Of a DNA stretch of 64,000 nt, positions 35,919-53,177 are shown in pieces. The stretch's first letter is position 1; each line of letters begins with the position of its first letter. The notes under the pieces are model-generated. The model did not search any database. It was not told the origin of the DNA and was given only the letters and a program-made list of their open reading frames with translations. The stretch spans positions 930,001-994,000 of the forward strand of contig NZ_QBUG01000001.1 in NCBI RefSeq assembly GCF_003058225.1, given 5' to 3'. The stretch is from Promicromonospora sp. AC04. GTDB taxonomy: Bacteria; Actinomycetota; Actinomycetes; Actinomycetales; Cellulomonadaceae. The position numbers were made by a program, and so were the translations under genes.

Positions 35919-35989
35919 CCTTGGTTGTGGGCGTGACCGTTGCAACCGCGCGCCCGATCTAGGCGCAACGATCGCGCCCACAACCAAGG
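35919..35989. repeat. Palindromic element, copy 1
   Basis: Arms of 25 bp (35919-35943 and 35965-35989) match at 23 positions around a 21-base loop. The element fills the gap between the aminotransferase stop (35911) and the LysE stop (35993), so it acts at least as a two-way terminator. Its arm sequence and much of the loop recur, in opposite orientation, at 53113-53173. Confidence 0.85.
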
Positions 35990-35992
35990 ACA

Positions 35993-36610
35993 TCAGCCAA
36001 GGAGCAGGGAGATCGCCACGGCCAGCATGATCAAGGCGATCAGGCCGTCCAGGACCCGCCACGCGCCCGGCCGCTGCAGCACGGGCGCGAGCAGCCGCGC
36101 GCCGTACCCGAGGGCGGCGAACCACGCGACGCTGGACACCATGGCCCCCGCGGTGAACCACCACCGCGTGTCGCCGTAGGTGGCGGCGACCGAGCCCTGC
36201 AGCATCACCGTGTCGAGGTACACGTGCGGGTTCAGCCAGGTGAGCGCCAGCGCGGTGAGGACCGCGGGCTTGAGGCGCCGGCCGGGGGCGTCCCCCAGGG
36301 CGCCGTCGTCGGCGGCGGCGAGCGTCGTGTCGCCCTTCACCGCCCGCCAGGCGGCCATGGCCCCGTACCCGAGCACGACGGCGGCGCCCAGCCAGCGCAC
36401 CACGACCACGGCGTCGGGCCACCGCTCGACGAGCGGCCCGAACCCGGCGGCGCCCGCCGCGTAGAGCACGACGTCGGAAGCCGCGCAGATCGCCGCGACC
36501 ACGCCCACGTGCTCGCGGCGCAGGCCTTGGCGCAGCACGAACGCGTTCTGGGCTCCGATGGCGACGATGAGCGAGAGGCCGAATCCGAGTCCGGCGAGGA
36601 GGGCGAGCAT
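35993..36610 (-). CDS. lysE: LysE-family amino acid exporter, copy 1
   Basis: A 205-residue LysE/ArgO-type exporter with about six hydrophobic segments. Family marks are GLSLIVAIGAQNAFVLRQGL near the start and LTWLNPHVYLDT in the middle. These proteins export lysine, arginine or related cations. ATG 36610 begins the standard start; a longer frame to 36652 is unlikely. It is divergent from the LysG-type regulator, the classical lysG-lysE layout, and closely resembles the second copy at 37731. Confidence 0.9.
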   Translation of the reverse strand: MLALLAGLGFGLSLIVAIGAQNAFVLRQGLRREHVGVVAAICAASDVVLYAAGAAGFGPLVERWPDAVVVVRWLGAAVVLGYGAMAAWRAVKGDTTLAAADDGALGDAPGRRLKPAVLTALALTWLNPHVYLDTVMLQGSVAATYGDTRWWFTAGAMVSSVAWFAALGYGARLLAPVLQRPGAWRVLDGLIALIMLAVAISLLLG

Positions 36611-36662
36611 GACGCCCACGCTAGGCAGCGGTTCGCCTGAAGACCAGTTCATGTTTCTCAGG

Positions 36663-36674
36663 CTGCGTAAGCAG
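36663..36674. promoter_or_regulatory. Possible LysG operator between lysE copy 1 and lysG
   Basis: CTGC-GTAA-GCAG (36663-36674) is a perfect palindrome in the 90-base divergent gap, 27 bases before the regulator start. A second look-alike, TTCTCAG against CTGAAG, surrounds it. Binding by the LysR-type regulator next door is inference. Confidence 0.4.
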
Positions 36675-36700
36675 AACTGAAGATGAGCCAGACTAGGGGC

Positions 36701-37633
36701 ATGCGATGGGACTCCCGCCAGCTCGAGGCACTGTCAGCCGTGGTCACCGAGGGCTCGTTCGACGCGGCGGCCCGGGTGCTGCACGTGACGCCGTCGGCCG
36801 TGAGCCAGCGCATCCGCGCACTGGAGAACGCGGCGGGCAGCGTGCTCGTGCGGCGCGCCCGGCCGGTGGTCGCCACGGCGTCGGGCCAGGCGCTACTGCG
36901 CCTCGCCCGGCAGACCGAGCTGCTCGGCGCGGAGGTCGCCGCGGAGCTGGGCGCGCACGACGCCGGCGACCGCGCGGGCGGGCTGGGAGCGGACGGCGGC
37001 GCGCCGGACACCTTCGTCACCGTGCCCCTGGCGGTCAGCGCGGACTCGCTCGGCACCTGGGTGCTGCAGGCCCTCGCCCAGGTCGACGGCGTCTGCTTCG
37101 ACCTGCATCGCGCCGACGACAGCCGCACCGCCGACCTGCTCCGCGAGGGCGTGGTCATGGCGGCGGTCACCTCGCAGACCGCCCAGGTGCAGGGCTGCCG
37201 CAGCACCCCGCTCGGGATCATGCGCTACCGCCCGGCGTGCACACGCGCGTTCGCGGAGCGCTGGTTCCCCCACGGCCCGACGCCGGACGCGCTCGCCGCC
37301 GCGCCCGTCGTCGTCTTCGACCGGACCGACGACCTGCAGGACATGTACCTGCGCGAGCGCGCACCGCGGGCCAGGCCGCCGCGGCACCACGTGCCGAGCA
37401 CCGTCGAGTACGAGGAGACCATCCGCCTCGGCCTGGGCTGGGGCATGCTGCTCGAGCGCCCCGCCATCGGCGGGCTCCACGAGGGCACCGGGGGTGGCAT
37501 CACGCTGCTGGAGCCCGACGCCGTCCTCGACATCCCGCTCCACCTGCAGCAGTGGAAGCTGCGGTCAGCGGTGCTGGACCGGGTAACGGCAGCCCTGCGA
37601 AAAGAAGCAACGCGCGAGCTGCTCCCGGCGTGA
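36701..37633 (+). CDS. lysG: LysG/ArgP-type LysR regulator
   Basis: A 310-residue LTTR of the ArgP/LysG branch. WDSRQLEALSAVVTEGSFDAAARVLHVTPSAVSQRIRALE is the DNA-binding start shared with C. glutamicum LysG and E. coli ArgP. It would sense basic amino acids and activate exporters. ATG 36701 was chosen because it begins the usual N-terminus; ATG 36683 is possible. It lies between two LysE exporters and can reach both. Confidence 0.9.
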   Translation: MRWDSRQLEALSAVVTEGSFDAAARVLHVTPSAVSQRIRALENAAGSVLVRRARPVVATASGQALLRLARQTELLGAEVAAELGAHDAGDRAGGLGADGGAPDTFVTVPLAVSADSLGTWVLQALAQVDGVCFDLHRADDSRTADLLREGVVMAAVTSQTAQVQGCRSTPLGIMRYRPACTRAFAERWFPHGPTPDALAAAPVVVFDRTDDLQDMYLRERAPRARPPRHHVPSTVEYEETIRLGLGWGMLLERPAIGGLHEGTGGGITLLEPDAVLDIPLHLQQWKLRSAVLDRVTAALRKEATRELLPA

Positions 37634-37730
37634 AATCTGGACTTTCCCCCATCATTAACCCTGTTCCAGGCCTACCGCACTTCCGAATCATGAACCGGAC
37701 ATCCCGCGTCCGACTTCCTACGGTTCAGAC

Positions 37731-38336
37731 ATGCTCTCAGCCCTCGCCGGCATGGCCTTCGGCCTGTCGCTCATCGTCGCCGTCGGAGCACAGAACATCT
37801 TCGTCCTCCGCCAGGGGCTGCGGCGGGAGCACGTGGGTCTCGTGGCGGGCATCTGCGCGGCCAGCGACTTCGTGCTCATCTCGGCCGGGGTCGGCGGGCT
37901 GGGCACCCTGATCCAGAGCGCGCCGTTCGTGGTCGAGCTGGCGCGCTGGGCGGGTGCCGTCGTCGTGCTGGTCTACGGCGGCATGGCCGCGCGCCGCGCG
38001 TGGCATGGCCAGCAGATGGTCATGGGCCGCCACAGCATGACCACCCGGACCGTGGGCGCCGCCGCCGTCACCACCCTCGCCCTTACCTGGCTGAACCCCC
38101 ACGTCTACCTCGACACCGTGGTGCTCGTGGGCGGCCTGGCCGCCACGCACGGCGACGACCGGTGGTGGTTCGGGCTCGGCGCCTGCCTCGCCAGCACCGC
38201 GTGGTTCGTCGCGCTCGGCTACGGGGCGCGCTACCTCGCGCCGGTGCTGGAGAAGCCCGGCGCGTGGCGCGTCCTGGACGGCGTCGTCGCCGCGACGATG
38301 CTGGTCGTGGCGGTATCGCTGCTCGTCGGCGCCTGA
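37731..38336 (+). CDS. lysE: LysE-family amino acid exporter, copy 2
   Basis: A 201-residue exporter closely related to copy 1: GLSLIVAVGAQNIFVLRQGL and LTWLNPHVYLDT are nearly the same, and the end VLDGVVAATMLVVAVSLLV aligns without gaps. Differences cluster in the central loop (residues ~85-105), so specificity may differ. It follows the regulator gene by 97 bases on the same strand. The two copies point away from each other around lysG, an inverted duplication. Confidence 0.9.
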   Translation: MLSALAGMAFGLSLIVAVGAQNIFVLRQGLRREHVGLVAGICAASDFVLISAGVGGLGTLIQSAPFVVELARWAGAVVVLVYGGMAARRAWHGQQMVMGRHSMTTRTVGAAAVTTLALTWLNPHVYLDTVVLVGGLAATHGDDRWWFGLGACLASTAWFVALGYGARYLAPVLEKPGAWRVLDGVVAATMLVVAVSLLVGA

Positions 38337-38343
38337 TCCCCCG

Positions 38344-39786
38344 TCAGGCGCAGACGCCGTCGAGCAGCACCTCCGGGCTCGGGCTCGGCTTCGGCGTGGC
38401 CGGCTCCTCGGCGGTACCGCCGTCGGCCCCGCCGGTCTCGCCCGTCGTGGTGTCCCCGGTGTCCGCCGTGTCGCCGGTGTCTCCCGTATCCGTGCCGGTG
38501 TCGCCGCCGGTCTCTTCGCCGGTGTCGGCGGAGCCGCCCTCGGCCGCACCGCTCGCGCTCGGCGAGCTCGACGGCTCCGCCTCGGGCAGCACCACGCTGT
38601 CCGGCGGGGTGTCCGCGGCGAGGCGGGCGAAGATCTCACTGGCCTCCGGAAGGTAGCCCAGGCCACCCACGCCGCCCTCGGTGGTGTCGTACACCGGGAC
38701 CTCGGTCATGATGATGTTGCGCTTCTCGATCTCCCGCAGCGACCACGCGAGGCCCGCTACGCTGCCCGGGTTGGCGATTGCCGGGTCGGCACTCAGGGAA
38801 CCGAGCGCCGCGTTGATCAGGCGGAAGGTCTTGGTCGGATCGGCGAGCGTCTCGGCGGACAGGATCTGCCGCAACGTGGCGTTGATGAACGCCTGCTGCC
38901 GCGCGATACGCGTCAGGTCGCTGCCCATCTCGAGCCCCATGCCGGTGCCCTTGCGTACGCGGAGGAACTGGATGGCGGTCTTGCCGTCGAGCCTGTTCTC
39001 GCCCGCTTCCAGATCGATGCGGGCTGACCTCGGGTCGCCGTGCAGCGCCTCGGGCAGGCACATCTTCACGCCGCCGATCGCGTCGACGACGTCGATCACG
39101 CCGTTCATCTTGACGACCGCGTGGTTGGAGATGGTGACGCCGGTCAGGGCGTTGACCGTGTTGATGGTGCACGCGGCGGCGTACTTGAGATCCGTGCCGC
39201 CGCTCCCGGTGCTGAAGGATGCGTTGAACTTGTCCCGGTAGGGCTGGGACTGGCTACCGTCCGGGAGCTGGCAGGACGGGATGTCCACGAAGGCGTCGCG
39301 CGGCAGCGAGACGATCTCGATCCATTCCCGGTCCGCCGAGATGTGTACCAGCATCGTGGTGTCCGACCGCATGCCGCTGACGGTGCCGCCGATGTCGGCG
39401 TTGCTGCCGTCGCGGATGTCCGTGCCCATCAGGAGCAGGTTGACCGGCGCGTCCTTGAACGGGTCGGTCGGGTCCTTCGGCTCGACCTGCTCGGTCACCA
39501 GGCCGTCCAGATCCTGGACCTCGATCTGCGAGATGGCGTTGTGGTACGCCGTCGCGGCCGCCGCGGAGCCGAACGCCATCGCCCCGACCACACCCATGGT
39601 CACCCCGCGGAACGCCAGCATCTTCCGCCAGCTACGCACGTGGCGGGGCTGGCGTTCGCCCGATCGCGCGTGTCGGGGAACCCCTTGAATTACCTCGCCG
39701 ACAGGTCGGACCGCCGTCCAGAAATCACTCGCCACGCCTTGGAGAGTAGGGCCTCGGTGCAACATTCGTGTAAATAAAGCCCGCAT
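38344..39786 (-). CDS. LytR-CpsA-Psr (LCP) family cell-wall ligase
   Basis: An LCP protein of up to ~480 residues. A transmembrane helix near residue 60-80 (GVTMGVVGAMAFGSAAAATA) precedes the LCP domain with MRSDTTMLVHIS, SLPRDAFVDIP, LDGKTAIQFLRVRKG and DLTRIARQQAF, which hold the polyprenyl-phosphate-binding arginines and the acidic metal site. LCP enzymes attach teichoic acid or arabinogalactan-like polymers to peptidoglycan. The C-terminal tail is low-complexity, rich in T, D and G, and ends in GVCA. The start is uncertain; ATG 39786 is the longest form not overlapping the upstream gene, and later GTG codons are possible. Confidence 0.88.
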   Translation of the reverse strand: MRALFTRMLHRGPTLQGVASDFWTAVRPVGEVIQGVPRHARSGERQPRHVRSWRKMLAFRGVTMGVVGAMAFGSAAAATAYHNAISQIEVQDLDGLVTEQVEPKDPTDPFKDAPVNLLLMGTDIRDGSNADIGGTVSGMRSDTTMLVHISADREWIEIVSLPRDAFVDIPSCQLPDGSQSQPYRDKFNASFSTGSGGTDLKYAAACTINTVNALTGVTISNHAVVKMNGVIDVVDAIGGVKMCLPEALHGDPRSARIDLEAGENRLDGKTAIQFLRVRKGTGMGLEMGSDLTRIARQQAFINATLRQILSAETLADPTKTFRLINAALGSLSADPAIANPGSVAGLAWSLREIEKRNIIMTEVPVYDTTEGGVGGLGYLPEASEIFARLAADTPPDSVVLPEAEPSSSPSASGAAEGGSADTGEETGGDTGTDTGDTGDTADTGDTTTGETGGADGGTAEEPATPKPSPSPEVLLDGVCA

Positions 39787-39829
39787 CTCCCAGGCCGTGT
39801 CCAGCCCACGCCTCGGGTCGGCCCGGGGT

Positions 39830-41068
39830 TCAGTTCGCGCAGACGCCCGGCAGCAGCGAGGGCGACGGCGACGGGCTGGCGCCGTCCGACGGCGTCTCCC
39901 CGCCCTCCTCGCCGGCTCCCGCGCCCGTGCCCTGGCCCGAGGCACCGCCTGAGGGCTCCCCCGATTCCCCGCCGGCACTCCCCGTGGCGGACGGCGCCGG
40001 CGTCTCGTGCCCGGGCGGCGGCTCGTCGGCAGCGATGCGCTCCCAGATCGCCGTGGCGTCCTCGGTCCAGACCACGCGGTTGGGGTCGCTCGGCGCGGCC
40101 ACCACGGGCAGCTCGGTGAACACGATCTGGGCCGGGTCGATGTCCCGGATGCTGAAGGCGAGGCCCGCGAGCGCCGCCGGGTCGGCCAGGCCGGGGTCCG
40201 CGGAGATGGCGCGCAGCACCGCCTGGATGGTGCGGTACAGCCGCGGTGAGTTCGTCACGACGTTCTGGTCCAGGACCTGGCGCACCAGTGCGTCGACGAA
40301 CGCCTGCTGGCGCTCGATCCGCGTGAGGTCGCTGCCCTGTTCGAGGCCCAGGCCCGTGCCGTGCCGGGCCCTGAGAAAGCCGATCGCCTGGCGCCCGTCG
40401 AGGGTCTGCTCGCCGGCGGGCAGCTCGAACTTGCCGTACGCCGGGTTCTGCACGAGCGGCTCGGGCAGGCACATGCGCACCCCGCCGAGCGCTTCGACGA
40501 CCTCGACCACGCCGTCCATCTTCACGACCATGTGGTTGGTGACTGGGACGTCGGTGAGGATCTGCACCGTCGAGATCGTGCAGGCGGCGGCGTACGTGAG
40601 GTCCTCCTCCGCGCCGCCGCCGATCGTGAACGCGCTGTTGAACATGCCGTAGGTGGCGCCGGACTCGCCGCCGTCGGGCAGCTCGCACGACGGGATGTCG
40701 ACCAGCGAGTCGCGCGGGACGGAGACCACCTCGATGCGGGACCGGTCGCCTGAGATGTGCACCAGCATCGTGGTGTCCGACCGCATGCCGCCGTCGCCCG
40801 CGCCCGCGATCTCGGTGTTCTCACCGCCGCGCAGGTCGGTTCCCATGATGAGGATGTTGAGGCTGCGGCCGGTGAACGGGTCGTCGGGGTCCGGCGTCGC
40901 CACCGACCCCTTGACCAAGCCGGACACGTCGCTCACGCCGATCTGCTGCTTCAGGTCGAGGTACGCGGCGGCTCCACCGGCGGCCACGAAGGCGAGTGCG
41001 CCGACGACAAGAAGCGTCGCGGCACGCGCGACGCGATGACTGCGCTGAGTACGGCTGTGCCGGGCCAC
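39830..41068 (-). CDS. LytR-CpsA-Psr family cell-wall ligase
   Basis: A 412-residue LCP protein, a paralogue of the next gene. After a short basic tail and one transmembrane segment (LLVVGALAFVAAGGAAAY), the LCP domain has MRSDTTMLVHIS, SVPRDSLVDIP, LDGRQAIGFLRARHG and DLTRIERQQAF. The tail is a Ser/Gly/Pro-rich linker ending in GVCAN. It would act outside the membrane, joining wall polymers to peptidoglycan. Its close neighbour downstream suggests the two are made together. Confidence 0.9.
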   Translation of the reverse strand: MARHSRTQRSHRVARAATLLVVGALAFVAAGGAAAYLDLKQQIGVSDVSGLVKGSVATPDPDDPFTGRSLNILIMGTDLRGGENTEIAGAGDGGMRSDTTMLVHISGDRSRIEVVSVPRDSLVDIPSCELPDGGESGATYGMFNSAFTIGGGAEEDLTYAAACTISTVQILTDVPVTNHMVVKMDGVVEVVEALGGVRMCLPEPLVQNPAYGKFELPAGEQTLDGRQAIGFLRARHGTGLGLEQGSDLTRIERQQAFVDALVRQVLDQNVVTNSPRLYRTIQAVLRAISADPGLADPAALAGLAFSIRDIDPAQIVFTELPVVAAPSDPNRVVWTEDATAIWERIAADEPPPGHETPAPSATGSAGGESGEPSGGASGQGTGAGAGEEGGETPSDGASPSPSPSLLPGVCAN

Positions 41069-41118
41069 CTTCGGAGCATAGGCAGGTAGCCCGGCACAAG
41101 GCCTGTTAAGTGGGCAGG

Positions 41119-43359
41119 TCAGCCCACTGCGGCGGCACCCAGGTCCGGGTTGTCCGTAAAGAAGCCGTCCAGGCCGGCCGCCAGGAAGACGCTGATCTCG
41201 CCCACGAGGTCACCGATCCCGTTCGGGTCGGCGGACGAGCGGAACTCGGTCGGCATGAACTGGTTCTCCCGGCGGAACGTCCAGGTGTGCACCTCGAGGC
41301 CCGCGCGGTGCGCATCGCGGATCACGCTGCTCGGCGCGGCGAGCGTGCCGTCGGCGTTGCGCGGGATCAGCACGTTCTTCTCCGCGCCGATGCCGTCCGC
41401 GTAGGTGGCGACCTCACGCAGCCCCTGCCGGGTGACCAGGTCCGCGTAGGTGCGCGGGTCGCCGTCGGCCACGAAGTCGTAGGGCGCACCGCTGCTGCTC
41501 ACGAGCTGGCCGAGCGGTACGTCGGTGAGCTCGTCGAGGTCCTGCAGGTTGCCCACCTCGAAGGACTGCACGATCACGGGGGCGTCCGCGTGGTCGAAGC
41601 CGTTGCGGCGCAGCTCGCGCACGAGCGGCTCCTCCAGGGACAGGCCCACGGAGTCGAAGTAGGTCGGGTGCTTGGTCTCCGGGTAGACGCCGACGGGCGC
41701 GCCGTCGCAGGTGCGGCTGTTCCGGGCCAGGTCGAGGACCTCGTCGAGCGTCGGGATCAGATAGAGCCCGTCGAACGGGGTGTTCTGGGGCCGGACCTGC
41801 GGCAGACGCTCCTTGGCGCGCAGGGTGCGCAGCTCGGCGAGCGTGAAGTCCTCGGTGAACCAGCCGGTGATCTGGACGCCGTCGATCGTCTTGGTGGTGC
41901 GGCGGCCGGCGAACTCGGGGTGGGCGGCGACGTCGGTCGTGCCGCTGATCTCGTTCTCGTGCCGGGCGACCAGCACGCCGTCCTTCGTGGACACCACGTC
42001 TGGCTCGATGTAGTCCGCGCACTGGTTGATGGCGGTCTCGTACGAGGCGAGCGTGTGCTCCGGCCGGTAGCCGGACGCCCCGCGGTGCCCGACGACGGTG
42101 ACGCCGTCGTCGACCACGCGCTCCTTCTTGAGGTCCACCAGGGCCATCTCGGTGTCGTCCGGGGTGCCAGTGGTCCGCGCGTCGTTGCCAGGGTAGTTGT
42201 TGTCGTTGCCGATCAGCAGCGTGTTCCTGTCGACGAACAGAACGGTCTCGAAGGACTGCACGGGGAGCGCGAACGTGTCGCCGAGCCCGTAGCCCTCCCC
42301 CGCGTCGATGCCGCGCGGGTTCTCGATCCGCAGGGCGTCCACGACGAGCTCCTTGCGGACGTAGCCGTCGCGGTCCGTGCGGTCGAGGTCGATCTCGTAC
42401 ACGCGCTTGGTGACCGACTGGTCGCCCTCGAAGTCGTCGCGCTCGATGAGCAGCATCGAGTCGCGGCCGGTGGAGAACGCGTCGCCGATGACGTCGGCCT
42501 CCTGGTCCGTCTGGTACGCCCAGCGCTTGCCGGTGTACTCGCCGCGACGTGTGTCGAACTGGTAGATCCAGCGGCGGCGGGCGTCGGCGTCGTCCGCCAG
42601 CTTGCCCTCGACGACCGGGTAGAGGTAGCGCCCGCTGCCCGCCAAGGCCTCGAAGCCGCGGCTGCTGCCGACGTTGGGCGTCTCGCCGGGCTCCAGGTAC
42701 GGGTTGCCGGGCGACTTGCCGTCCGGGAACTCGTACGGGGCCTCCAGCAGCGTGCCGTCGGCGTCGAAGTGCAGCAGGAACGGGCCGAACTCCTCGCCCA
42801 CCCACAGCGTGCCGTCGGCTGCACGGACGAGGGACTCGATGTCGAAGTCGGCGCCCGTGAGGAGCCGCTCGTCGGTGTCCTCGTTGACGATGTCGAAGTC
42901 GAGCACGTCGTTGCGGTCGTTGTACTCGATGAAGTCGAGGACCTTGATCTCGCCCGAGCCCCTCTTGCCGGTGTCCCACTGGGGGCGCACCAGGTAGTTG
43001 CGCAGGAGGAAGTCGGCGGAGTTGCCCTTCGCCCCGAAGCCGTTGTCCGGCTGGGCCCAGAAGGTCCCGTCGTGGTTGTCGACCATCGCGGAGAAGCCGG
43101 GGATCACCTGGCCGTCCCAGGGTCCCTGCCGCCCGTTGGCGGGGCTGGCGGCGGCGCCCGACGGCGGGCCTTCGGCCAGGTAGTCGGCTGACAGCGTGGC
43201 GCGGCCGGCCAGCGTGGCGGCGAGGTGGGTGGCGCCGTGGTGCTCAGGCCCCGAGCCCTGCTGGGGCCGGGCGACGGCGACGGCCGCGGGAAGCAGCAGC
43301 GACGCTGCTGCCGCGGCGGCCAGCACGCGCGTGGCGCGGGTACGCATGGGTGTGCTCAT
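41119..43359 (-). CDS. Secreted fusion: phytase-like esterase domain plus glycerophosphodiester phosphodiesterase
   Basis: A 746-residue exported protein with a Sec signal (~residues 1-30). Residues ~55-415 match the esterase-like activity of phytase family (GQVIPGFSAMVDNHDGTFWAQPDNGFG; SFETVLFVDRNTLLIGNDNNYP). Residues ~420-740 are a GDPD barrel, with the catalytic HRGASGYRPEHT near residue 425 and YIEPDVV. Known GDPDs release alcohols and glycerol-3-phosphate from phospholipid head groups or teichoic acids. The combined protein probably frees phosphate from wall or environmental phosphodiesters. A PHO-box-like repeat lies just upstream. Confidence 0.9.
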   Translation of the reverse strand: MSTPMRTRATRVLAAAAAASLLLPAAVAVARPQQGSGPEHHGATHLAATLAGRATLSADYLAEGPPSGAAASPANGRQGPWDGQVIPGFSAMVDNHDGTFWAQPDNGFGAKGNSADFLLRNYLVRPQWDTGKRGSGEIKVLDFIEYNDRNDVLDFDIVNEDTDERLLTGADFDIESLVRAADGTLWVGEEFGPFLLHFDADGTLLEAPYEFPDGKSPGNPYLEPGETPNVGSSRGFEALAGSGRYLYPVVEGKLADDADARRRWIYQFDTRRGEYTGKRWAYQTDQEADVIGDAFSTGRDSMLLIERDDFEGDQSVTKRVYEIDLDRTDRDGYVRKELVVDALRIENPRGIDAGEGYGLGDTFALPVQSFETVLFVDRNTLLIGNDNNYPGNDARTTGTPDDTEMALVDLKKERVVDDGVTVVGHRGASGYRPEHTLASYETAINQCADYIEPDVVSTKDGVLVARHENEISGTTDVAAHPEFAGRRTTKTIDGVQITGWFTEDFTLAELRTLRAKERLPQVRPQNTPFDGLYLIPTLDEVLDLARNSRTCDGAPVGVYPETKHPTYFDSVGLSLEEPLVRELRRNGFDHADAPVIVQSFEVGNLQDLDELTDVPLGQLVSSSGAPYDFVADGDPRTYADLVTRQGLREVATYADGIGAEKNVLIPRNADGTLAAPSSVIRDAHRAGLEVHTWTFRRENQFMPTEFRSSADPNGIGDLVGEISVFLAAGLDGFFTDNPDLGAAAVG

Positions 43360-43392
43360 GCGGGCGAGCCAAGTCGGCGCAGCGGAAATCCC

Positions 43393-43421: not shown

Positions 43422-43434
43422 TCTCAGACCGGTC

Positions 43435-45576: not shown

Positions 45577-45594
45577 GCAGTTTGAGCGCAGATC

Positions 45595-45610: not shown

Positions 45611-45650
45611 TCGGGTGGCGGATAGCCGGATACCTCTACACGCTTACCCC

Positions 45651-46265
45651 ATGACGATCTCCACCACAAAGGACGACCTTGAGCCCGACGGCTACCAGGC
45701 GTTCATCACGGACCTCAAGCACCGGGTCCGCGGCACGCAGTTCCGCATGGTCCGCGCAGCCAACGCCGAGCTCCTCCGGCTACTGGAGCGTGGGCAACGA
45801 CATCTTGACCCGACAGCGAGACCAGGGCTGGGGCGCCAAGGTCGTGGACCGCATCTCGGCCGATATGCGACGCGAGTTCCCTGGTCAGCACGGATGGTCG
45901 CGGCGCAATCTGCTCTACATGCGCAAGGTCGCCGAGGCGTGGCCGACCGAGGCCGAATTTGTGCACCAGCCTGGTGCACAATTGCCATGGCGCCACGTCA
46001 CCGTTCTCCTCGACAAGCTTCACGCTCGCCAGGACCGCTGTCCACGGCCGCCGCGCCAACTGCCGTGGCGCTCTACGAGGGCCTGACGCCCGAGGAGCAG
46101 GCCGCGTTGCCGAGTGCGGCCGAGCTCGAAGCAGTCGTCAGGGACGAGATCAAGGCCTACGACCGAGCGCGGTTGGATGCCGCAGGAGACGACGCTGCGG
46201 ACTACTTCGAGCCGCTTGAACCCGACGCTCTCGGCGTCATCCAGCGATCGAGGAACGGCATCTAG
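45651..46265 (+). pseudogene. Broken DUF1016 (PDDEXK/YhcG-type) gene
   Basis: From ATG 45651 the first frame gives the family start (YQAFITDLKHRVRGTQFRMV, ANAELLR). Near 45780 the pattern moves to another frame, which continues YWSVGNDILTRQRDQGWG, then WSRRNLLYMRKVAEAWP and LPWRHVTVLLDKL, up to about 46030. That is the DUF1016 N-terminal domain; the C-terminal nuclease domain is missing. After it the first frame carries ALYEGLTPEEQAALPSAAEL and ends at 46265, seemingly a piece of another protein. So one frameshift and one deletion have broken the gene. DUF1016 proteins often occur on mobile or defence-related islands. Confidence 0.75.
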
Positions 46266-46282
46266 CGCTACCCGCACGCGGA

Positions 46283-46316
46283 GCGTGCCGTGTCGGCCGA
46301 GGCCGACGCGGCACGC
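46283..46316. terminator. Bidirectional hairpin terminator
   Basis: 16-bp arms (46283-46298 and 46301-46316) pair at 15 positions around a tight centre, in the gap between the DUF1016 remnant and the convergent membrane protein gene. Confidence 0.75.
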
Positions 46317-46333
46317 CCTGGCGACCGGCCCGG

Positions 46334-47335
46334 TCAGCCGACCGTCGTCGGCCCGTAGACCGCGACCTGGACGCTGCCGCCGACCTCGAAGTCCACGCGG
46401 GCGCACTCCGCCGACTCGTCCACGACGGTCGTGGTCGGCCAGTGGTGCTCGAGGGGAGCGAGCGCCTCGTCGGCGACGTCCCGCGCCTGCTCGGCCGTGA
46501 GGCACTGCTCGGCGATGTCGCTGCGCAGCATGTCCACCACCGGTTCGAGCTCGGGGACGGAGTAGAGCAGCTCCGGATCCTCGGAAGGCGCGACCACCAG
46601 CGTCCCGGCTTCTTCGGCGGACATCCCGCTGCACGGCCGCTCCGGGCTCGCCGTCCCCACCGTCTCGACGGCCCAGTCCTCCTCCAGCCCCAGCCGGTCG
46701 AGCTCGGACTGCGCCCATGCCACGCCCTCGTCGAGGGTGCGGCAGGAAGAGTTGCCGCCGTCGACCTGGTCGCCCAGGCTCATCCGGAGCTCGATCACCC
46801 TCGCGTCCACCGCAGGCCCGGACCCGCTGTCGATCGGCTCGATCCAGTCAGGTGCCTGGTCGGTGGGCGTCACGAACATGTGGCCGTCGTGCTCGAAGAC
46901 CACGGGATCGGCGATGGGCGGCAGACCCGCCTCGGCGAGCATAGTGGTGCAGTCGGCGACGGCGTCGCCGGTGAGCCACGGCCCGGACGCGTCGGTGTCC
47001 AGGCCCTCGAGCGCACGGTCGTTCCACGTGGTCATGCACGTGAGCCCCTCCGTGCCCCCGCCCAGGTACGCCTGGACGGCCGCGTATGCGACGCCGCCCC
47101 CCGCGAGCACGCCGGCCAGGGTGACGGCGATCGCGCCACGCCGCCCGAGCCGCTTCCGGCGGGCGCCGGGCAGCGGCGCCCCGAAGGCCTCTCGCTCCGC
47201 CGCGGCGGCGTCCAGCTGGGTTCCTGTCATGGTGATCTCCTCGCGCAGGGCGGCGAATGCCGCCGGATCCACGGCGTCGAGGTCAACCCGACGCATCGGG
47301 TCCGCGGCCTTCAGCTGCTTCATCTCGTCCGTCAT
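46334..47335 (-). CDS. Membrane protein next to ECF sigma factor, putative anti-sigma factor
   Basis: A 333-residue protein of one-helix topology: an N-terminal cytoplasmic part (~78 residues), a helix (GAIAVTLAGVLAGGGVAYAAV), and an extracellular C-terminal part with paired cysteines that may form disulfides. It lacks the HxxxCxxC zinc anti-sigma motif. Its ATG at 47335 overlaps the sigma factor stop (ATGA). This is the standard place for an ECF anti-sigma or sensing partner. The extracellular sequence is not recognised. Confidence 0.75.
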   Translation of the reverse strand: MTDEMKQLKAADPMRRVDLDAVDPAAFAALREEITMTGTQLDAAAAEREAFGAPLPGARRKRLGRRGAIAVTLAGVLAGGGVAYAAVQAYLGGGTEGLTCMTTWNDRALEGLDTDASGPWLTGDAVADCTTMLAEAGLPPIADPVVFEHDGHMFVTPTDQAPDWIEPIDSGSGPAVDARVIELRMSLGDQVDGGNSSCRTLDEGVAWAQSELDRLGLEEDWAVETVGTASPERPCSGMSAEEAGTLVVAPSEDPELLYSVPELEPVVDMLRSDIAEQCLTAEQARDVADEALAPLEHHWPTTTVVDESAECARVDFEVGGSVQVAVYGPTTVG

Positions 47336-47937
47336 CACGCCTCCTCGATCCCGGGGCGGGCTCCTGCCCACCTGCTCATCACCTGTCCGCCTGTGGCGGA
47401 ACGTTTCAGGGGTTCCTGCAGAGCGGCCAGCTGGTCGGCGAGCCGACGGCGCGCCCGGTGCAGACGAACGCGCACCACGGTGCGCGAGACGCCAAGGGCC
47501 AGCGCGATCTCGTCTCGGCCGAGCTCTTCCCAGGCCACCAGGCGCAGGATCTCCTGGTCGTCGGCGGAGAGGCGGGCGAGGGCCCGCTCGATATCGCTCC
47601 CAGAGTCGTCGGGCGGCGGCGCCACGTCGGTGAGGTGGTCTCGCAGCCGATCCGCGAGGGCGAGCCGACGGCGATCGCCGCGGCGCGTGTTGGCGAGCAC
47701 CCGGCGGGCCACCCCGAACATCCAGGGCCGGGCGTCGTCCCCGCCGGGGACGTCGTCGATGCGACGCCAGGCGACGAGGAAGCTCTCGGCGACCACGTCA
47801 GCGGCGTCCGCCGGCTCGGTCACCCGGCGCACGGCGTAGGCGAGCAGGGCGCGGTGCGTGGACTCGAAGAGCGCGGTGAACCGGTCCTCGCGGTCGGCGA
47901 GCGGGTCGGGTGGTGGCTGGGGCTCGGGGGACGTCAT
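47335..47937 (-). CDS. ECF-type RNA polymerase sigma factor
   Basis: A 200-residue sigma factor with region 2 (FTALFESTHRALLAYAVRRV, then DVVAESFLVAWRRIDDVPG, then RPWMFGVARRVL) and region 4 (IERALARLSADDQEILRLVAWEELGRDEIALALGVSRTVVRVRLHRARRRL). The structure fits small ECF factors controlling envelope or stress genes. Only the linked membrane gene is visible as a target. An in-frame start matches the ORF length for the family. Confidence 0.93.
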   Translation of the reverse strand: MTSPEPQPPPDPLADREDRFTALFESTHRALLAYAVRRVTEPADAADVVAESFLVAWRRIDDVPGGDDARPWMFGVARRVLANTRRGDRRRLALADRLRDHLTDVAPPPDDSGSDIERALARLSADDQEILRLVAWEELGRDEIALALGVSRTVVRVRLHRARRRLADQLAALQEPLKRSATGGQVMSRWAGARPGIEEA

Positions 47938-48014
47938 CCGGGACCTCTCGGTGGCGTGGCTGTGACGAGAGTGTCATGTCCGGTTGGCCCGGCAGCGTTA
48001 CAGGAGCCTGCCGG

Positions 48015-48686
48015 CTACGCCGCGAGCGGTACGTCGTCCAGCGTCCGGATCCGGTCCGCGACCTCCGGGTACCGGTCGGCCCGGTCCAGCAGCAGCGCGC
48101 CCAAGCCGGCGTCGAGCGGGCCCAGGTAGTCCTTCTCGACGTCGTTGCCCACCATCAGCACGTCGCCCGGCGTGACGCCGAGGATCTCGCAGGCGACGGC
48201 GTACGCGCGCGGGTCGGGCTTGCCCGCGGGCAGGTCGTCCGAGGAGACGACGACGTCGACGTGCTCGGCCAGGCCCGTGCGGTCGAGCTTGAGCCGCTGG
48301 TGGGCCGAGTCGCCGTTGGTGAGCAGCGCGACGACGAGGCCGGCGTCGCGCACCCGCCGCAGGGCCGGGACGGCGTCGTCGAACGCCGTCCAGGCCTGTT
48401 CGTAGCGGGACAGGTAGCCGGAGAAGAGCTCGTCGGCCTCTTCGTCGGTGGCGTCGGCCCCCAGGAACTCGCGCACGCGGACGCGCCGCTGCCCCGCGAA
48501 CGTCAGCTCGCGGCGCTGGTAGCGGCCGTAGGCCTCCTCGGCGATGCTGCCCCACGCGGCGACCAGCTCATCCGGGTCGTCGAGGTCCAGACCCAGCTCG
48601 GGCAGCCAGTCCAGGAGCGCCGCGCGAGAGGCGCCCTCCTGGTCCACGAGTGTGTCGTCGAGATCGAAGAGAACGACTTTCAGCAC
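48015..48686 (-). CDS. HAD-superfamily hydrolase
   Basis: A 223-residue HAD phosphatase with motif I VLFDLDDTLVDQ, motif II LLTNGD, and motif III-IV K near SSDDLPAGKPDPRAY and VGNDVEKDYLG. The helical cap is of the C1 type, as in phosphoglycolate phosphatase- and haloacid-dehalogenase-like proteins. It probably removes phosphate from a small metabolite; the substrate is not apparent. The start is GTG at 48686. Confidence 0.9.
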   Translation of the reverse strand: MLKVVLFDLDDTLVDQEGASRAALLDWLPELGLDLDDPDELVAAWGSIAEEAYGRYQRRELTFAGQRRVRVREFLGADATDEEADELFSGYLSRYEQAWTAFDDAVPALRRVRDAGLVVALLTNGDSAHQRLKLDRTGLAEHVDVVVSSDDLPAGKPDPRAYAVACEILGVTPGDVLMVGNDVEKDYLGPLDAGLGALLLDRADRYPEVADRIRTLDDVPLAA

Positions 48687-48749
48687 GTTCGCATCGTGTC
48701 ATACGCCCGCCACCGCACCGCCATGGCGGGCCGCGCGGCCGTCGTCCGG

Positions 48750-49490
48750 CTACGCCCCGCCCGTCATCCCGATCACCTGGCCGTTGATCGCGGTGTTGGC
48801 GGCCGAACCGAGCCAGACGACGGCGGTCGCCACCTCCGACGCGTCCAGCAGCCGGCCGAGCGGAGACCGCTCCCCGTACGTCTGCCCCACCTCCTCGATG
48901 ATGTGGGTGTTGGTCGCCGTCCTGGTCAGGCCCAGCAGAGCCACGTTGGAGAGCAGGTCCCCGTCCCGCCCGAGCGAGAACGCGACGGACCGGCTGAAGC
49001 CGTGCAGCGCCGCCTTGGCCGCCGCGTAGTACTCGGCCCCGGGCGCGCCGTCCGTCGCGAGCGACGACGAGAGATGGATGAGCCGCCCCCAGCCGGCCGC
49101 ACGCATCAGCGGTGTGACGGCGCGGGTCAGCCGGATCGCGCCCTCGATGTTGCTGCGGATCAGCCCGGTCCACTCCTCGTCCGGCACGGTGTCGAAGGGC
49201 GCCATGCCTCCCCAGGCCACCGCGTTGTTGACCAGCACGTCCACCCGTCCGGTGGCCTCGACGGCGGCGGCGACAAGCGCCTCGGCCGCTGCCGGGTCCG
49301 CCTGGTCGTACTGGACGACGACCGCACGGTCGCCGATCTCGTCGGCCACCTTCTGCGCCTCGTCGCGAGCGTTGCGGTAGGTGACCACGACGTTCGCGCC
49401 CTCCGCTCCGAAGGCGGTGGCGATGTGTCGCCCGACGCCGCCCGACGCGCCGGTCACGATGACTGTCCGTTCCTGAAGTCCGGTATCCAT
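48750..49490 (-). CDS. SDR-family oxidoreductase
   Basis: A 246-residue classical SDR with TGASGGVGRHI as cofactor loop, NNAV, catalytic S in HLSSSLA, and YYAAAKAALHGF. It likely uses NADP, since the loop is followed by TYRNARD. Function cannot be set from sequence. It is divergent from the XRE-family regulator gene at 49592. Confidence 0.9.
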   Translation of the reverse strand: MDTGLQERTVIVTGASGGVGRHIATAFGAEGANVVVTYRNARDEAQKVADEIGDRAVVVQYDQADPAAAEALVAAAVEATGRVDVLVNNAVAWGGMAPFDTVPDEEWTGLIRSNIEGAIRLTRAVTPLMRAAGWGRLIHLSSSLATDGAPGAEYYAAAKAALHGFSRSVAFSLGRDGDLLSNVALLGLTRTATNTHIIEEVGQTYGERSPLGRLLDASEVATAVVWLGSAANTAINGQVIGMTGGA

Positions 49491-49591
49491 GGCTCCACCG
49501 TGCGCGGGCCGGCGTCGGGCAACCAGGCCGCCCTGAGGCTGGCCCTGAGCGGGCCACCCTCCGCGCGTCCGGCACCTCTACGCTGGGCCTC

Positions 49592-50428
49592 ATGACCAGC
49601 GAGCTCGGCGCGCTCCTGCGCGCCCACCGCGAGGCCCTCGCCCCGGAGGACGTGGGCCTGCCCCGCGGCGCCCGACGCCGGACGCCGGGCCTGCGCCGCT
49701 CGGAGCTCGCCACGCTCGCCGAGGTCAGCGTCGAGTACCTGACCCGCCTGGAGCAGGGGCGCGACAAGCATCCGTCGCCCGAGATCCTCGGCGCGCTGGC
49801 GGACGCGCTCCGGCTCCCCTCGGACGAGCGCTTCCTGCTGCTCCGCGCCAGCAAGGGCCCGAACGGCGTCTGCGCCGTCGACCCGCCCGCCGACTCGGTG
49901 CGGCCGCCGGTCCGCGCGTTCCTCGACCGGCTGGAACCATCGCCCGCGGTGCTGCTCAACCGCGTGAGCGACGTCCTCGCCGCCACGAGCGCGTACCGCA
50001 GGCTGCTCGAGCCGTTCGGCCTGTTCGACGACGACCAGCCCAACCTGCTGCGGTTCGTCCTCACCGAACCCCGGGCCCGGGAGGCGTATCCCGACTGGGA
50101 GCACGTCGCGGACCGGCACGTCGCGGCCCTCCGGATGGAGTCGGTCCCGGGCGATCCGCACGTCGCCGAGCTCGCCAGGACGATGACCGTCCTGGCGGGA
50201 GCGGCATTCAGCGACCGGTTCGCCGCGCCGCTCTCGGCCCGGTACCGCACCGCCACGGAGCGGATGCGGCATCCGGAGGCCGGGGATCTGCGGCTGGACG
50301 TCGAGACCCTCGCGCTGCCCGACGCCGACGGCCAGCATCTGGTGGTGCACCTGCCCGCGGACGCGGCGACGTCGGACGCGCTCGACCGGCTGGCCGGCCG
50401 CAGGCCGGGCGCGCTGCGCGCCGTGTGA
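49592..50428 (+). CDS. XRE-family regulator with MmyB-like ligand domain
   Basis: A 278-residue protein. The N-terminal XRE helix-turn-helix (RRRTPGLRRSELATLAEVSVEYLTRLEQGRDKHPSPEIL) precedes an MmyB-like PAS-type domain (LLNRVSDVLAATSAYRRLLEPFG), common in actinomycete regulators. These often control a divergent oxidoreductase, and the SDR gene at 48750 fits. The ligand is unknown. Confidence 0.92.
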   Translation: MTSELGALLRAHREALAPEDVGLPRGARRRTPGLRRSELATLAEVSVEYLTRLEQGRDKHPSPEILGALADALRLPSDERFLLLRASKGPNGVCAVDPPADSVRPPVRAFLDRLEPSPAVLLNRVSDVLAATSAYRRLLEPFGLFDDDQPNLLRFVLTEPRAREAYPDWEHVADRHVAALRMESVPGDPHVAELARTMTVLAGAAFSDRFAAPLSARYRTATERMRHPEAGDLRLDVETLALPDADGQHLVVHLPADAATSDALDRLAGRRPGALRAV

Positions 50429-50595
50429 CGGGCACTCCGCACCACGACAGGCACCCACCGCGCCCGTGTAACGGGCGCCCTCCGCGCGAGCTGACGTCCG
50501 GAAGGTGAACTATGCCCCTCGGGGCAACGTAACAGCAGGTCCGAGCGTCCCTACCCCGTGACAGGTTTTCCGTCCTTACCCGACATGGGGGATTC

Positions 50596-52287
50596 ATGAC
50601 CGCACGCCGCTTGTCCCGCCCATCACCGCGCCTGCTCACGATGGGCGTCGCCGCTGTACTGGCACTGGGCCTGCTCGGCGAAGGGGGCGCGACCGACACC
50701 GCGGCCGCGGCCGCCGGGACAACAACACCGACTGCCGCCGAACCCTCGGCGCAGCGCGGCCTCCGCTTCGCCCCGGCGTCGAGCACCGTCGAGGGCTACA
50801 CCTACGACGGCTACGTGTACCTCGACTCGGCCGTCTGGATGGCCGCCTACGGCGAAGGCTACGAGTTCTTGACCAAGCGCGCCAAGGCCTCTGACCCGGT
50901 CACGCTCACCAAGACGGTGATCCGCGGCGACAAGCGCACCACCACGAAGGCCCCGGCCGCGATCGTCGACGGGCTCGACGGCTTCAAGAACGGGCTCACG
51001 GTCCAGGTGGTCGACGCCAACGGCAACGTGCTGCTCAAGAAGTCCCGCAGCCTGTGCCTGGGCGGGGCGGAGCGCCAGCGCGTCGAGCCCACCGGCAACA
51101 CGGAGCCGATCTACCCCGGGTTCTGCGGCGGCAACTGGTTCACGAAGTCCACGGTGTTCGGGATCGAGCAGGGCTGGGCGGCCAAGCTGGACACCTACTT
51201 CGAGGTGAAGACCACGCGCAGGAACCTCAGGATGACCGTGACCATCAGCGATCCCGTCGCGAACTTCCTCGGCCTCCCCGCCGACGGTCGCTCGGTGTCG
51301 CAGCGCGTCAAGGTGGTCGACGAATGCCAGCTCGTGGACTGCGGAGAGGTCGGCGAAGCGCTGCTGGGCACGCCCGACGAGGGCTTCAGCACCCTGGCGG
51401 AGGGCGAACCGACCCCCCAGGAGAAGCACGTGCGCACCCTGTCCGGCGGCTCGCACGCGGTCCACGGTGACAGCACCGAGTCCACGCACCGCACCAACCT
51501 CTTCACCATCGACGGCGAGAGCCAGGCGCACGGCGGCGACCACCCGGCGCTCGGCCAGCCGGGTTCGACCCCCTCGAACGACAAGCCGGCCAAGGACACG
51601 CTCCCCGACCTCGTGTCGGTGCCCGCGTGGCAGATCGGGAGCGAGCGGGACGGCGGCGTCGACCGCCTCACCTTCAACGCCCACGAGTGGAACGCCGGAC
51701 CGGCTCCCCTGGTCGTCGAGGGCTACCGCCGCGGCGCCGGCGAGGTCATGGACGCCTACCAGTTCTTCTACCGGGACGGCAAGGAGGTCGGCAGCACCAG
51801 GACCGGGACCATGAAGTACCACGACGCTCCCGAGCACGACCACTGGCACTTCCTGGACTTCGCGAGCTACGAGCTCGTCAAGCCCGACGGCTCCCTGGTG
51901 ACGACGAGCGGCAAGCAGTCGTGGTGCCTGGTGCCGACGGACCCCGTCGACCTCTCGGTGCCGGGTGCCGCCTGGCGTCCGGAGGCCACCGGCCTCGACA
52001 GCGCGTGCGGCGACAGGTCCGCCCTGTGGCTGCGCGAGGTGCTGCCCGCCGGCTGGGGCGACACCTACAGCCAGTACCAGACCCAGGCGTTCAACCTGAC
52101 GGGCGTCCCCAACGGGACCTACAAGATCAAGATCACGGTGAACCCGAACGGCAACCTGCACGAGCGGACGACGGCAAACAACGTCAGCTACCGGACCGTC
52201 GTCCTCGGCGGTCGGCCGGGCGCTCGCACGGTCAAGGTCCCGCCGTACCAGGGCGTCGACACCGAGGTCCCGGTCACCGAGGAGTAA
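50596..52287 (+). CDS. Secreted lysyl-oxidase-like protein
   Basis: A 563-residue protein with a signal peptide (~residues 1-40, Ala-rich). The C-terminal ~200 residues match the lysyl oxidase family: the copper ligands sit in H414-x-H416-x-H418 (PEHDHWHFLDF), preceded by MKYHDAP and followed by NPNGNLHERTTANN. Bacterial members oxidise amines or crosslink proteins; the animal enzyme acts on collagen lysines. The N-terminal ~350 residues are not recognised but repeat short Ig-like blocks. The 167 bases before it hold no other gene. An oxidised-lysine wall or matrix role is inference. Confidence 0.85.
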   Translation: MTARRLSRPSPRLLTMGVAAVLALGLLGEGGATDTAAAAAGTTTPTAAEPSAQRGLRFAPASSTVEGYTYDGYVYLDSAVWMAAYGEGYEFLTKRAKASDPVTLTKTVIRGDKRTTTKAPAAIVDGLDGFKNGLTVQVVDANGNVLLKKSRSLCLGGAERQRVEPTGNTEPIYPGFCGGNWFTKSTVFGIEQGWAAKLDTYFEVKTTRRNLRMTVTISDPVANFLGLPADGRSVSQRVKVVDECQLVDCGEVGEALLGTPDEGFSTLAEGEPTPQEKHVRTLSGGSHAVHGDSTESTHRTNLFTIDGESQAHGGDHPALGQPGSTPSNDKPAKDTLPDLVSVPAWQIGSERDGGVDRLTFNAHEWNAGPAPLVVEGYRRGAGEVMDAYQFFYRDGKEVGSTRTGTMKYHDAPEHDHWHFLDFASYELVKPDGSLVTTSGKQSWCLVPTDPVDLSVPGAAWRPEATGLDSACGDRSALWLREVLPAGWGDTYSQYQTQAFNLTGVPNGTYKIKITVNPNGNLHERTTANNVSYRTVVLGGRPGARTVKVPPYQGVDTEVPVTEE

Positions 52288-52325
52288 CCCGTTGCTGTCG
52301 GCCGGCGGTGCGTAGGCTGCGCCCC

Positions 52326-53105
52326 ATGACCGCCAGCACCACGACGTCGGGCATCCCGTCCGGGAGCCGCATCACCTGCACCCTCTCGGACGGGATCGCC
52401 GACGTCCGCCTCGACCGGCCCGACAAGCTCAACGCGCTGTCCCTCGACATGCTCCGCGAGCTCAAGGCCACCGCGCGCCGGCTCCGCCGCGAGCCCGGGC
52501 TGCGCGCGGTGGTCGTCTCGGGCAACGGCAGGTCGTTCTGCGCGGGGCTCGACCTCGGCGCGGCGGCCCGCAACCCGGCCGCCGTGGCCAGGGCGTTCGT
52601 GCCGACCCCGCGCGGCACCAACCTGTTCCAGGAGGCCTGCTGGACGTGGCGACGCCTGCCGGTCCCCGTGATCGCCGCCGTGCACGGGCACGTGCTCGGC
52701 GCGGGCGTGCAGATCGCGCTCGCCGCCGACCTGCGCCTCACGACCCCCGATGCCCGCTGGTCCGTCAAGGAGGTCGAGCGCGGCCTGGTCCCCGACATGT
52801 CCGGGATCCGCGCGCTGACGCAGCTCGTGGGCATCGAGACGGCAAAACGCCTCACCTTCACGGCCGAGGAGTTCACCGGGGCCGACGCCGGCCGGCTGGG
52901 CCTGGCCGGGACCGTCACCGACACGCCGCTGGACGAGGCGTTCGCGCTGGCGCGGCAGATCTCCGAACGCCGGCCCGAGGCCGTTGCGGCGGCGAAGCGG
53001 CTGTTCGACCGGCGCTGGTCGTCGGGCGACCGGCGCACGTTCGCGGCCGAGCGCCGCGAGCAGCTGAGGCTCCTCCCGGGCGCCATGCGAACCCTGAAGC
53101 GCTGA
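52326..53105 (+). CDS. Enoyl-CoA hydratase/isomerase-family (crotonase) protein
   Basis: A 259-residue crotonase. The oxyanion-hole pieces are FCAGLDLG and HVLGAGVQIALAADLRL, followed by MSGIRALTQLVG. The usual second catalytic glutamate of hydratases is not at the common position (VERGLVPDMSG), so an isomerase, hydrolase or decarboxylase reaction is possible. No beta-oxidation partner lies adjacent. The gene is followed by the second palindromic element. Confidence 0.9.
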   Translation: MTASTTTSGIPSGSRITCTLSDGIADVRLDRPDKLNALSLDMLRELKATARRLRREPGLRAVVVSGNGRSFCAGLDLGAAARNPAAVARAFVPTPRGTNLFQEACWTWRRLPVPVIAAVHGHVLGAGVQIALAADLRLTTPDARWSVKEVERGLVPDMSGIRALTQLVGIETAKRLTFTAEEFTGADAGRLGLAGTVTDTPLDEAFALARQISERRPEAVAAAKRLFDRRWSSGDRRTFAAERREQLRLLPGAMRTLKR

Positions 53106-53112
53106 CCCCCTC

Positions 53113-53173
53113 GTTGTGGGCGCGATCGTTGCGCCTAGAACGGGCGTCTCATCGCAACGATCGCGCCCACAAC
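53113..53173. repeat. Palindromic element, copy 2
   Basis: Perfect 21-bp arms (53113-53133 and 53153-53173) surround a 19-base loop. It sits between the crotonase stop (53105) and the cyclase stop (53178), the same layout as copy 1. Compared with copy 1 read on the other strand, the loop and inner arm agree at about 16 of 19 bases and the arms share TTGTGGGCG. Confidence 0.85.
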
Positions 53174-53177
53174 AAGA

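What the first reader, a model, noticed from the sequence alone, without database searches (positions are those of the whole stretch)
35919..53173. A palindromic element occurs twice, each time between convergent stop codons
Copies at 35919-35989 and 53113-53173 have long arms sharing TTGTGGGCG and the GATCGTTGC core, and their loops align at ~16 of 19 bases when one is reversed. Conserved loops are not needed for termination, so these look like members of a mobile or duplicating family that doubles as terminator.
Basis: seen in the sequence. Interest (0 to 1): 0.62.

Follow-up and report, generated by a model that had tools for sequence, protein, structure and literature searches.

The report
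Dispersed hairpin family at gene ends
The two hairpins belong to a family of about fifty near-copies that sit just after genes in this Promicromonospora genome, come and go between related species, and probably mark the ends of RNA transcripts, although the enzyme that usually spreads such repeats was not found.

Summary
The two palindromes belong to a family of at least 48 copies in this 6.85-Mb Promicromonospora genome: 19-nt core arms around a conserved centre, 21 nt long in 46 of 48. Of 43 copies in convergent or tandem gaps, 42 lie within 30 nt of a stop codon (median 10); only 24 of 48 are convergent. Arm hits range from 0 to 125 per strand among 13 Promicromonospora genomes. Orthologous sites are often empty, collapsed, or hold another hairpin, and the centre can lie inverted at the same site in two species. 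No Y1/RAYT-type gene was found in the 13 genomes and no U-tract follows the stem. Loop direction ignores gene direction and G-U/C-A mismatches show no strand bias, so the loop is not an oriented RNA signal. Best reading: REP-like dispersed hairpins acting on both strands as 3'-end hairpins (terminator or exonuclease barrier), spread without RAYT. Palindromes with the same outer end but other inner arms occur in other genera of the family. New variant of a known kind; function and copying step are inferred.

The parts
35919..35989 (-). Copy A of the hairpin family (core 35925-35983; centre reads GCCTAGATCGGGCGCGCGGTT on the - strand)
   Evidence: G000:C1:965919-965989:-, 85.8 bits; no copy in the same gap in 11 of 11 relatives in which both flanks aligned
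53110..53176 (+). Copy B of the family (core 53114-53172; centre GCCTAGAACGGGCGTCTCATC on the + strand)
   Evidence: the same gap in P. panici (G008) holds a copy with the same private centre variant, inverted; no copy in the other 10 aligned relatives
34652..35911 (+). Class I/II aminotransferase gene; its stop lies 13 nt before the copy A core
   Evidence: Pfam PF00155, 1.3e-64
35993..36652 (-). LysE-type translocator gene; its stop lies 9 nt after the copy A core
   Evidence: Pfam PF01810, 2.2e-34
52326..53105 (+). Enoyl-CoA hydratase/isomerase family gene; its stop lies 8 nt before the copy B core
   Evidence: Pfam PF00378, 1.8e-39
53178..54245 (-). Gene with an adenylate/guanylate cyclase catalytic domain; its stop lies 5 nt after the copy B core
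   Evidence: Pfam PF00211, 6.2e-13

Best explanation
The two palindromes are members of a family of dispersed, non-autonomous hairpin repeats of Promicromonospora, REP-like in behaviour. SHOWN: one unit, a stem of about 25 bp with a conserved centre, is present at many unrelated loci, nearly always within 30 nt of a stop codon; between species, sites are filled, empty, collapsed, or hold another hairpin; the centre can be inverted in place, and the foot of the stem is extended copy by copy. INFERRED: transcribed from either side, the unit forms a very stable RNA hairpin that ends the transcript, either by stopping RNA polymerase without a U-tract or by blocking 3'-5' exonucleases behind Rho-terminated ends; being palindromic, it serves both convergent genes. 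INFERRED: inversion, arm correction and stem extension come from replication template switching within the hairpin. The step that carries copies to new loci is unidentified; no Y1/RAYT gene was found, and an unknown trans-acting enzyme or ectopic template copying between hairpins are both open.
For: 48 paired copies. The 12-mer TTGTGGGCGNGA followed by a base other than C at position 14 occurs twice in the genome, both inside these palindromes, and every place listed that holds the 12-mer belongs to a paired copy (by eye; that list is cut at its end). 42 of 43 copies in convergent or tandem gaps within 30 nt of a stop, median 10. Convergent gaps over-used, 24 of 43 against 19% background (p=1e-7); divergent gaps avoided, 2 of 45 against 28% (p=7e-5). 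Stem covariation: 44 double-changed cells against 21 in shuffles, 0 of 500 as high. Site A without a copy in 11 of 11 aligned relatives; site B filled only in P. panici of 11. 22 randomly drawn own copies: filled in 32 of 67 syntenic site-genome pairs. Identical 59-nt cores at different loci, 2 pairs each in P. soli and P. panici. Inversion of the centre: site B, with a private variant, and 3 of 32 shared copies in the random sample, one doubtful. Stem extension: 0 of 1000 shuffles reach the observed run of foot pairs in each of three genomes.
Against: No T-run follows the stem: in 94 of 96 outward 12-nt stretches the longest T run is 2 or less. [quoted passage not shown]). 2 of 48 copies are between divergent genes, and 3 of 19 tandem copies leave only 21-24 nt before the next called start, little room for a promoter. 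Two other covariation measures are weaker: pairs with a double change 38 of 500 shuffles as high, further pair types 28 of 500. Orthologous copies (84% identical, n=29) are only a little more alike than the same copies and own paralogs (80%), and by the centre alone the ortholog is the closest own copy in only 4 of 29, so descent and homogenisation are not cleanly separated. In the own genome no two cores are identical (best 98%) and in G001 the best is 90%, so recent copying is seen only in two species. No clean insertion junction or target duplication was seen, and several unfilled sites read as deletion remnants, so loss explains part of the pattern. No expression data.
Confidence: 0.72

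Rival explanations
1. Non-autonomous miniature element moved in trans by an unidentified transposase or recombinase that recognises the conserved ends, with insertion aimed at gene ends; any terminator role is secondary. (This and the next rival are versions of the copying step that the best explanation leaves open.)
For: Arms conserved in sequence beyond what pairing needs; identical cores at different loci; outer 12 nt shared across genera while inner arms differ; arm hits from 0 to 125 per strand within one genus.
Against: No Y1 transposase; the genes between 10 close pairs of copies read as ordinary chromosomal genes, with no shared gene (judged by eye); no lone ends that could bound an autonomous element; no target duplication seen.
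Confidence: 0.35
2. Passive spread by template switching: nascent strands stalled in one hairpin copy the centre of another, so that hairpin modules replace one another at gene-end slots without a dedicated enzyme.
For: Inversion in place, copy-specific stem extension, strand-symmetric mismatches, different hairpins in the same slot and a chimera with this family's outer arms and another family's centre (L321). Loop inversion and stem extension by template switching are described in PMC8794818 (passages).
Against: The passages seen describe change within a hairpin; copying between distant loci is not shown. Site A has no long hairpin in the short gaps of 11 aligned relatives, so it was not a pre-existing hairpin slot there.
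Confidence: 0.25
3. Ordinary transcription terminators that look alike by convergence or common need.
For: Gene-end placement and strong stems.
Against: Centre and exact arm sequence are shared, which termination does not need; the centre lies with the gene in 9 and against it in 10 tandem gaps; aligned relatives without a copy have short gaps at site A.
Confidence: 0.04
4. Sequence-specific RNA aptamer or riboregulator in 3' UTRs, recognised by an RNA-binding protein through its loop.
For: Conserved loop.
Against: Loop direction random relative to transcription, 9 to 10; G-U against C-A mismatches 39 to 44 in loop orientation; no Rfam family at gathering score in the window.
Confidence: 0.03
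5. DNA uptake signal whose paired copies form terminators, as in Neisseria and Pasteurellaceae.
For: Paired uptake signals in terminator hairpins are a known arrangement (PMC1852404, passages).
Against: Uptake signals generally occur a thousand times or more; here the outer 12-mer was found only inside palindromes.
Confidence: 0.01

Closest known systems
REP elements / REPINs with RAYT (GTAG-tagged REPs)
   Same: Dispersed extragenic palindromes in many copies, placed just after stop codons between convergent or tandem genes (PMC3733652, abstract and sections 6, 15, 16).
   Different: No Y1/RAYT gene found in 13 genomes; no conserved unpaired GTAG or CGTC tag at the foot; unit about 69 nt with a 25-bp stem instead of 20-40 bp; copies not in dimers, the closest two own copies found being 927 nt apart.
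CGTC-tagged REPs
   Same: REP-like placement and no associated transposase gene (PMC3733652, sections 15, 16).
   Different: CGTC REPs have 8-9-bp stems, 4-5-nt loops and a CGTC tag (section 6); this unit has none of these.
U-less ('I-shaped') hairpin terminators of mycobacteria
   Same: Hairpin within 50 nt of the stop codon, no poly-U (PMC12288462, passages).
   Different: Described there as a structural class, not as a homologous dispersed sequence family; here arms and centre are shared by descent.
Template-switch hairpins
   Same: Loop inversion in place, arm correction and stem extension (PMC8794818, passages).
   Different: The passages seen concern change within hairpins, not dispersal of one hairpin to tens of loci.

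Membership tests
REP (GTAG/CGTC-tagged repetitive extragenic palindrome) | Palindrome dispersed in many copies in extragenic space | tested here: met
   48 paired copies; 45 of 48 outside called genes, 3 overlapping one
REP (GTAG/CGTC-tagged repetitive extragenic palindrome) | Placement close to the 3' end of flanking genes, convergent or tandem | tested here: met
   42 of 43 within 30 nt of a stop codon; 24 convergent, 19 tandem, 2 divergent, 3 overlapping, of 48
REP (GTAG/CGTC-tagged repetitive extragenic palindrome) | Unpaired GTAG or CGTC motif at one end | tested here: not met
   Columns outside the stem carry little information and show no conserved tetranucleotide (46 copies); a GTAG occurs only inside the centre consensus
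REP (GTAG/CGTC-tagged repetitive extragenic palindrome) | Unit of 20-40 bp | tested here: not met
   Unit about 69 nt
REP/REPIN mobilised by RAYT | Y1 tyrosine transposase (RAYT) in the genome | tested here: not met
   PF01797: 0 of 13 genomes at E<=1; control rings in 10 of 14, 6 over the cut-off
TIR-type MITE | Target-site duplication and an autonomous partner with the same ends | tested here: inconclusive
   No lone ends found; no duplication visible at empty/filled pairs, but the junctions are diverged
Canonical intrinsic terminator | G+C-rich hairpin followed by a U-tract | tested here: not met
   Longest T run 2 or less in 94 of 96 outward stretches; the scan near copy A finds none, but its loop limit of 8 nt would exclude this hairpin anyway
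U-less 3'-end hairpin | RNA 3' ends at the hairpin in vivo | not testable with these tools
   No RNA data
DNA uptake signal in terminators | Signal also abundant as single copies | tested here: not met
   Outer 12-mer found only inside palindromes
Rfam RNA family | Match at the curated gathering score | tested here: not met
   0 matches in the window; 12 sub-gathering matches, mostly generic microRNA-type hairpins, in 6 chosen loci

The most novel reading that the evidence does not exclude
Gene ends in Promicromonospora, and perhaps in other genera of its family, carry 'slots' occupied by competing hairpin families that replace, nest in and invert one another without a dedicated transposase. 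The hairpins are built of modules (an outer 12-14 nt TTGTGGGCGNGA shared across genera, with exchangeable palindromic inner arms) copied between loci through their own single-stranded hairpin form: replication of a structure rather than of a coding element.
Probability: 0.22. Interest if true: 0.78.

Novelty: new variant of a known kind. Interest (0 to 1): 0.52.

Why it matters
REP elements are explained by RAYT transposases, or left unexplained in the CGTC class. Here is a family in an actinobacterial genus for which no RAYT was found, with site differences between species, inversion of the centre and different hairpin families in the same sites. That makes it a tractable case for asking how short hairpins multiply in bacterial genomes, and whether high-GC actinobacteria draw their transcript 3' ends from such dispersed hairpins. 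The listings returned by my searches (some lists were cut, for example 20 of 247 papers) showed no paper on this family by title; subscription journals are largely outside that library.

Tried and rejected
Autonomous element with the same ends: none found. Genes between close pairs of copies (10 pairs up to 7.5 kb apart in the loci used): ordinary chromosomal genes by reading, no shared gene. Plasmid and phage records: no match for copy A. Viral contigs: 3 contigs with one arm hit each, not examined further. RNA aptamer reading: rejected by direction and mismatch symmetry. Uptake signal: rejected. Rfam: nothing at gathering score, only sub-gathering matches.

Limits and rows dropped. One search lists only part of the low-scoring places; 48 is a lower bound. 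The occupancy test used 22 copies drawn at random from 46 (A and B left out) and 4 genomes; 21 of 88 site-genome pairs without both flanks were dropped, and the 18 anchor hits in a fifth genome, G002, were not fetched. The convergent/tandem test left out 3 copies overlapping a called gene and 2 divergent ones; its background is the window plus 400 kb of another genome of the genus, chosen where family copies were known. Loci used for other hairpin families were likewise chosen around copies, so no densities are claimed. Loci of P. soli and P. panici come mostly from an exact pattern, which favours well-conserved copies and filled sites. In one of the four identical-core pairs the match continues past the element on one side as far as it can be read, so a larger duplication is not excluded there. 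Of 23 loci read, two (L233, L234) do not belong to the outer-end group although the model matched them.
Full report
1. The observation. Two long hairpins lie at 35919-35989 and 53110-53176, each between convergent stop codons. Their neighbours are an aminotransferase and a LysE-type translocator, and an enoyl-CoA hydratase and a cyclase-domain gene. Folding is far beyond shuffles (z -7.5 to -8.7).

2. Genome-wide family. The arm TTGTGGGCGCGATCGTTGC with up to 3 mismatches hits this genome 52+51 times, against 0+3 for the reversed control. Pairing the arms in the 54 loci fetched gave 48 palindromes; in 46 the arms start exactly 40 nt apart, enclosing a 21-nt centre that can lie either way round. 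The centre consensus is GCCTAAAACGGGCACGTAGTC, with eight of 21 columns above 90%. A covariance model built on the 48 copies gives 114 matches at E<=0.01 in this genome; one search shows that one place can be reported on both strands, so this may be about 57 elements. The 12-mer TTGTGGGCGNGA followed by a base other than C at position 14 occurs twice, both inside these palindromes, and each place listed that holds the 12-mer belongs to a paired copy. I found no lone ends.

3. Placement. With a simple codon-usage gene caller, 24 copies are convergent, 19 tandem, 2 divergent and 3 overlap a called gene. Of the 43 convergent and tandem copies, 42 are within 30 nt of a stop codon, median 10. Convergent gaps are used 24 of 43 times against a 19% background (p=1e-7), and divergent gaps 2 of 45 against 28% of gaps of 60 nt or more (p=7e-5). 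No U-tract follows the stem: 94 of 96 outward 12-nt stretches have no T run above 2.

4. Structure and strand. The stem keeps pairing through double changes: 44 cells against 21 in shuffles, 0 of 500 as high; two weaker measures reach 38 and 28 of 500. In loop orientation, G-U and C-A mismatches are about equally common (39 and 44). In tandem gaps the centre is read with the gene 9 times and against it 10 times. A loop read as RNA by a protein would not be expected to tolerate this. Conservation of the centre therefore more likely reflects descent, or recognition of DNA without regard to strand.

5. Distribution. Of 13 genomes of the genus, 8 have a model match; in one, G005, the single match reads as another hairpin type (L233), leaving 7; 5 have none, one of them 83% complete. 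Outside the genus, 5 of 46 sampled relatives had a single arm hit. The model matches 27 of 200 genomes of the family, in 7 of 25 genera, some weakly. I read 23 loci from 10 of these genomes: 21 show palindromes with the outer end TTGTGGGCGNGA or a version of it with a few changes, and inner arms that differ between genomes but stay palindromic; L233 and L234 do not. An exact search for this end on both sides hits 7 of 396 genomes of the order, in 2 of 110 genera.

6. Gain, loss, inversion. At site A none of 11 aligned relatives has a copy (gaps of -7 to 21 nt against 81); in the twelfth, P. panici, about 6.4 kb separate the two genes. At site B, P. panici has a copy and 10 other aligned relatives have none. 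The P. panici copy carries the same centre variant GTCTCATC, which I found at no other site in the loci held, and lies inverted. For 22 randomly drawn own copies, 32 of 67 syntenic site-genome pairs are filled: P. soli 10 of 17, P. panici 11 of 19, G001 4 of 16, P. iranensis 7 of 15. Three of these 32 are scored as inverted, one doubtful because its centre differs in length. Two more inversions (L028/L124, L167/L068) are in the set, which favours filled sites. Unfilled sites include collapsed remnants of the family (for example L308, L280) and other hairpins. Against a simple story of mobility: orthologous copies are 84% identical and the same copies 80% identical to own paralogs, and by the centre alone the ortholog is the closest own copy in 4 of 29; some absences are losses. 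For recent copying: two pairs with identical 59-nt cores at different loci in each of P. soli and P. panici, though none in this genome or in 13 copies of G001.

7. Other hairpin families and chimeras. The loci held contain further multi-copy hairpins at gene ends: GGTCGAGCTTGTCGAGACC, TTGAGTGCTGG, CGAGGTAGAAC and ACGTGTCAGACGCC types. At the slot of own locus L033, five genomes hold four kinds of hairpin by reading; in P. iranensis (L321) this family's outer arms enclose a GGTCGAGCTTG-type centre. In 400 kb of one genome of another genus (G102) several families occur, some sharing an outer end with different centres.

8. Mechanism. Placement and stem strength make a 3'-end role on both strands the likeliest function. 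A review describes U-less terminators within 50 bp of stop codons as predominant in mycobacteria and Rho-dependent termination as dominant overall, while its reference list includes a paper titled as requiring a U-tract (PMC12288462, passages). An exonuclease barrier behind Rho-dependent ends is therefore an equal candidate; that alternative rests on general knowledge, not on a call. Inversion of the centre, arm correction and copy-specific stem extension fit replication template switching (PMC8794818, passages). For stem extension, 0 of 1000 shuffles reach the observed run of foot pairs in three genomes; a looser count of pairs in 12 nt gives 1, 0 and 13 of 1000. How copies reach new loci is not shown. 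The Y1/RAYT route is excluded as far as PF01797 detects it, and no shared gene lies between 10 close pairs.

9. Comparison. The closest kind is the REP element: Di Nocera et al. report REPs next to the 3' ends of convergent and unidirectional genes, GTAG REPs with RAYTs and CGTC REPs without a transposase (PMC3733652, abstract and sections 6, 15, 16). This family works like a REP but is not filed as one: no tag, a larger unit, no RAYT found. The listings of my literature searches showed no report of it.

Noticed in passing
L256, L268, L275, L277, L287, L289, L312, L316, L321, L325, L327 (orthologous sites) and loci: At least four other multi-copy hairpin families (GGTCGAGCTTGTCGAGACC, TTGAGTGCTGG, CGAGGTAGAAC, ACGTGTCAGACGCC types) sit at gene ends in Promicromonospora, some in slots that hold this family in another species.
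   Followed up: partly
L321, middle of the locus (P. iranensis), orthologous to L033 1501-1559: Chimeric hairpin: outer arms of this family, centre of the GGTCGAGCTTG family.
   Followed up: partly
   Followed up: partly
L081, L089, L269 (P. panici, G008:C9:203109-209528); window site 35912-35992: About 6.4 kb separate the two genes in P. panici at the gap that holds copy A here; the border genes read as other genes, the middle was fetched but not read.
   Followed up: no
L039, right after the element (about 1565-1610): A short run of direct repeats of GGTCAGGG next to the hairpin, each carrying a reverse-strand stop codon (seen).
   Followed up: no
window 35993-38336: Two LysE-like genes (71% identical over about 600 nt) flank a gene that reads as a LysR-type regulator (name recalled).
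   Followed up: no
L037 and L046: The called end of the neighbouring gene lies inside the element, as reported for some REPs.
   Followed up: no
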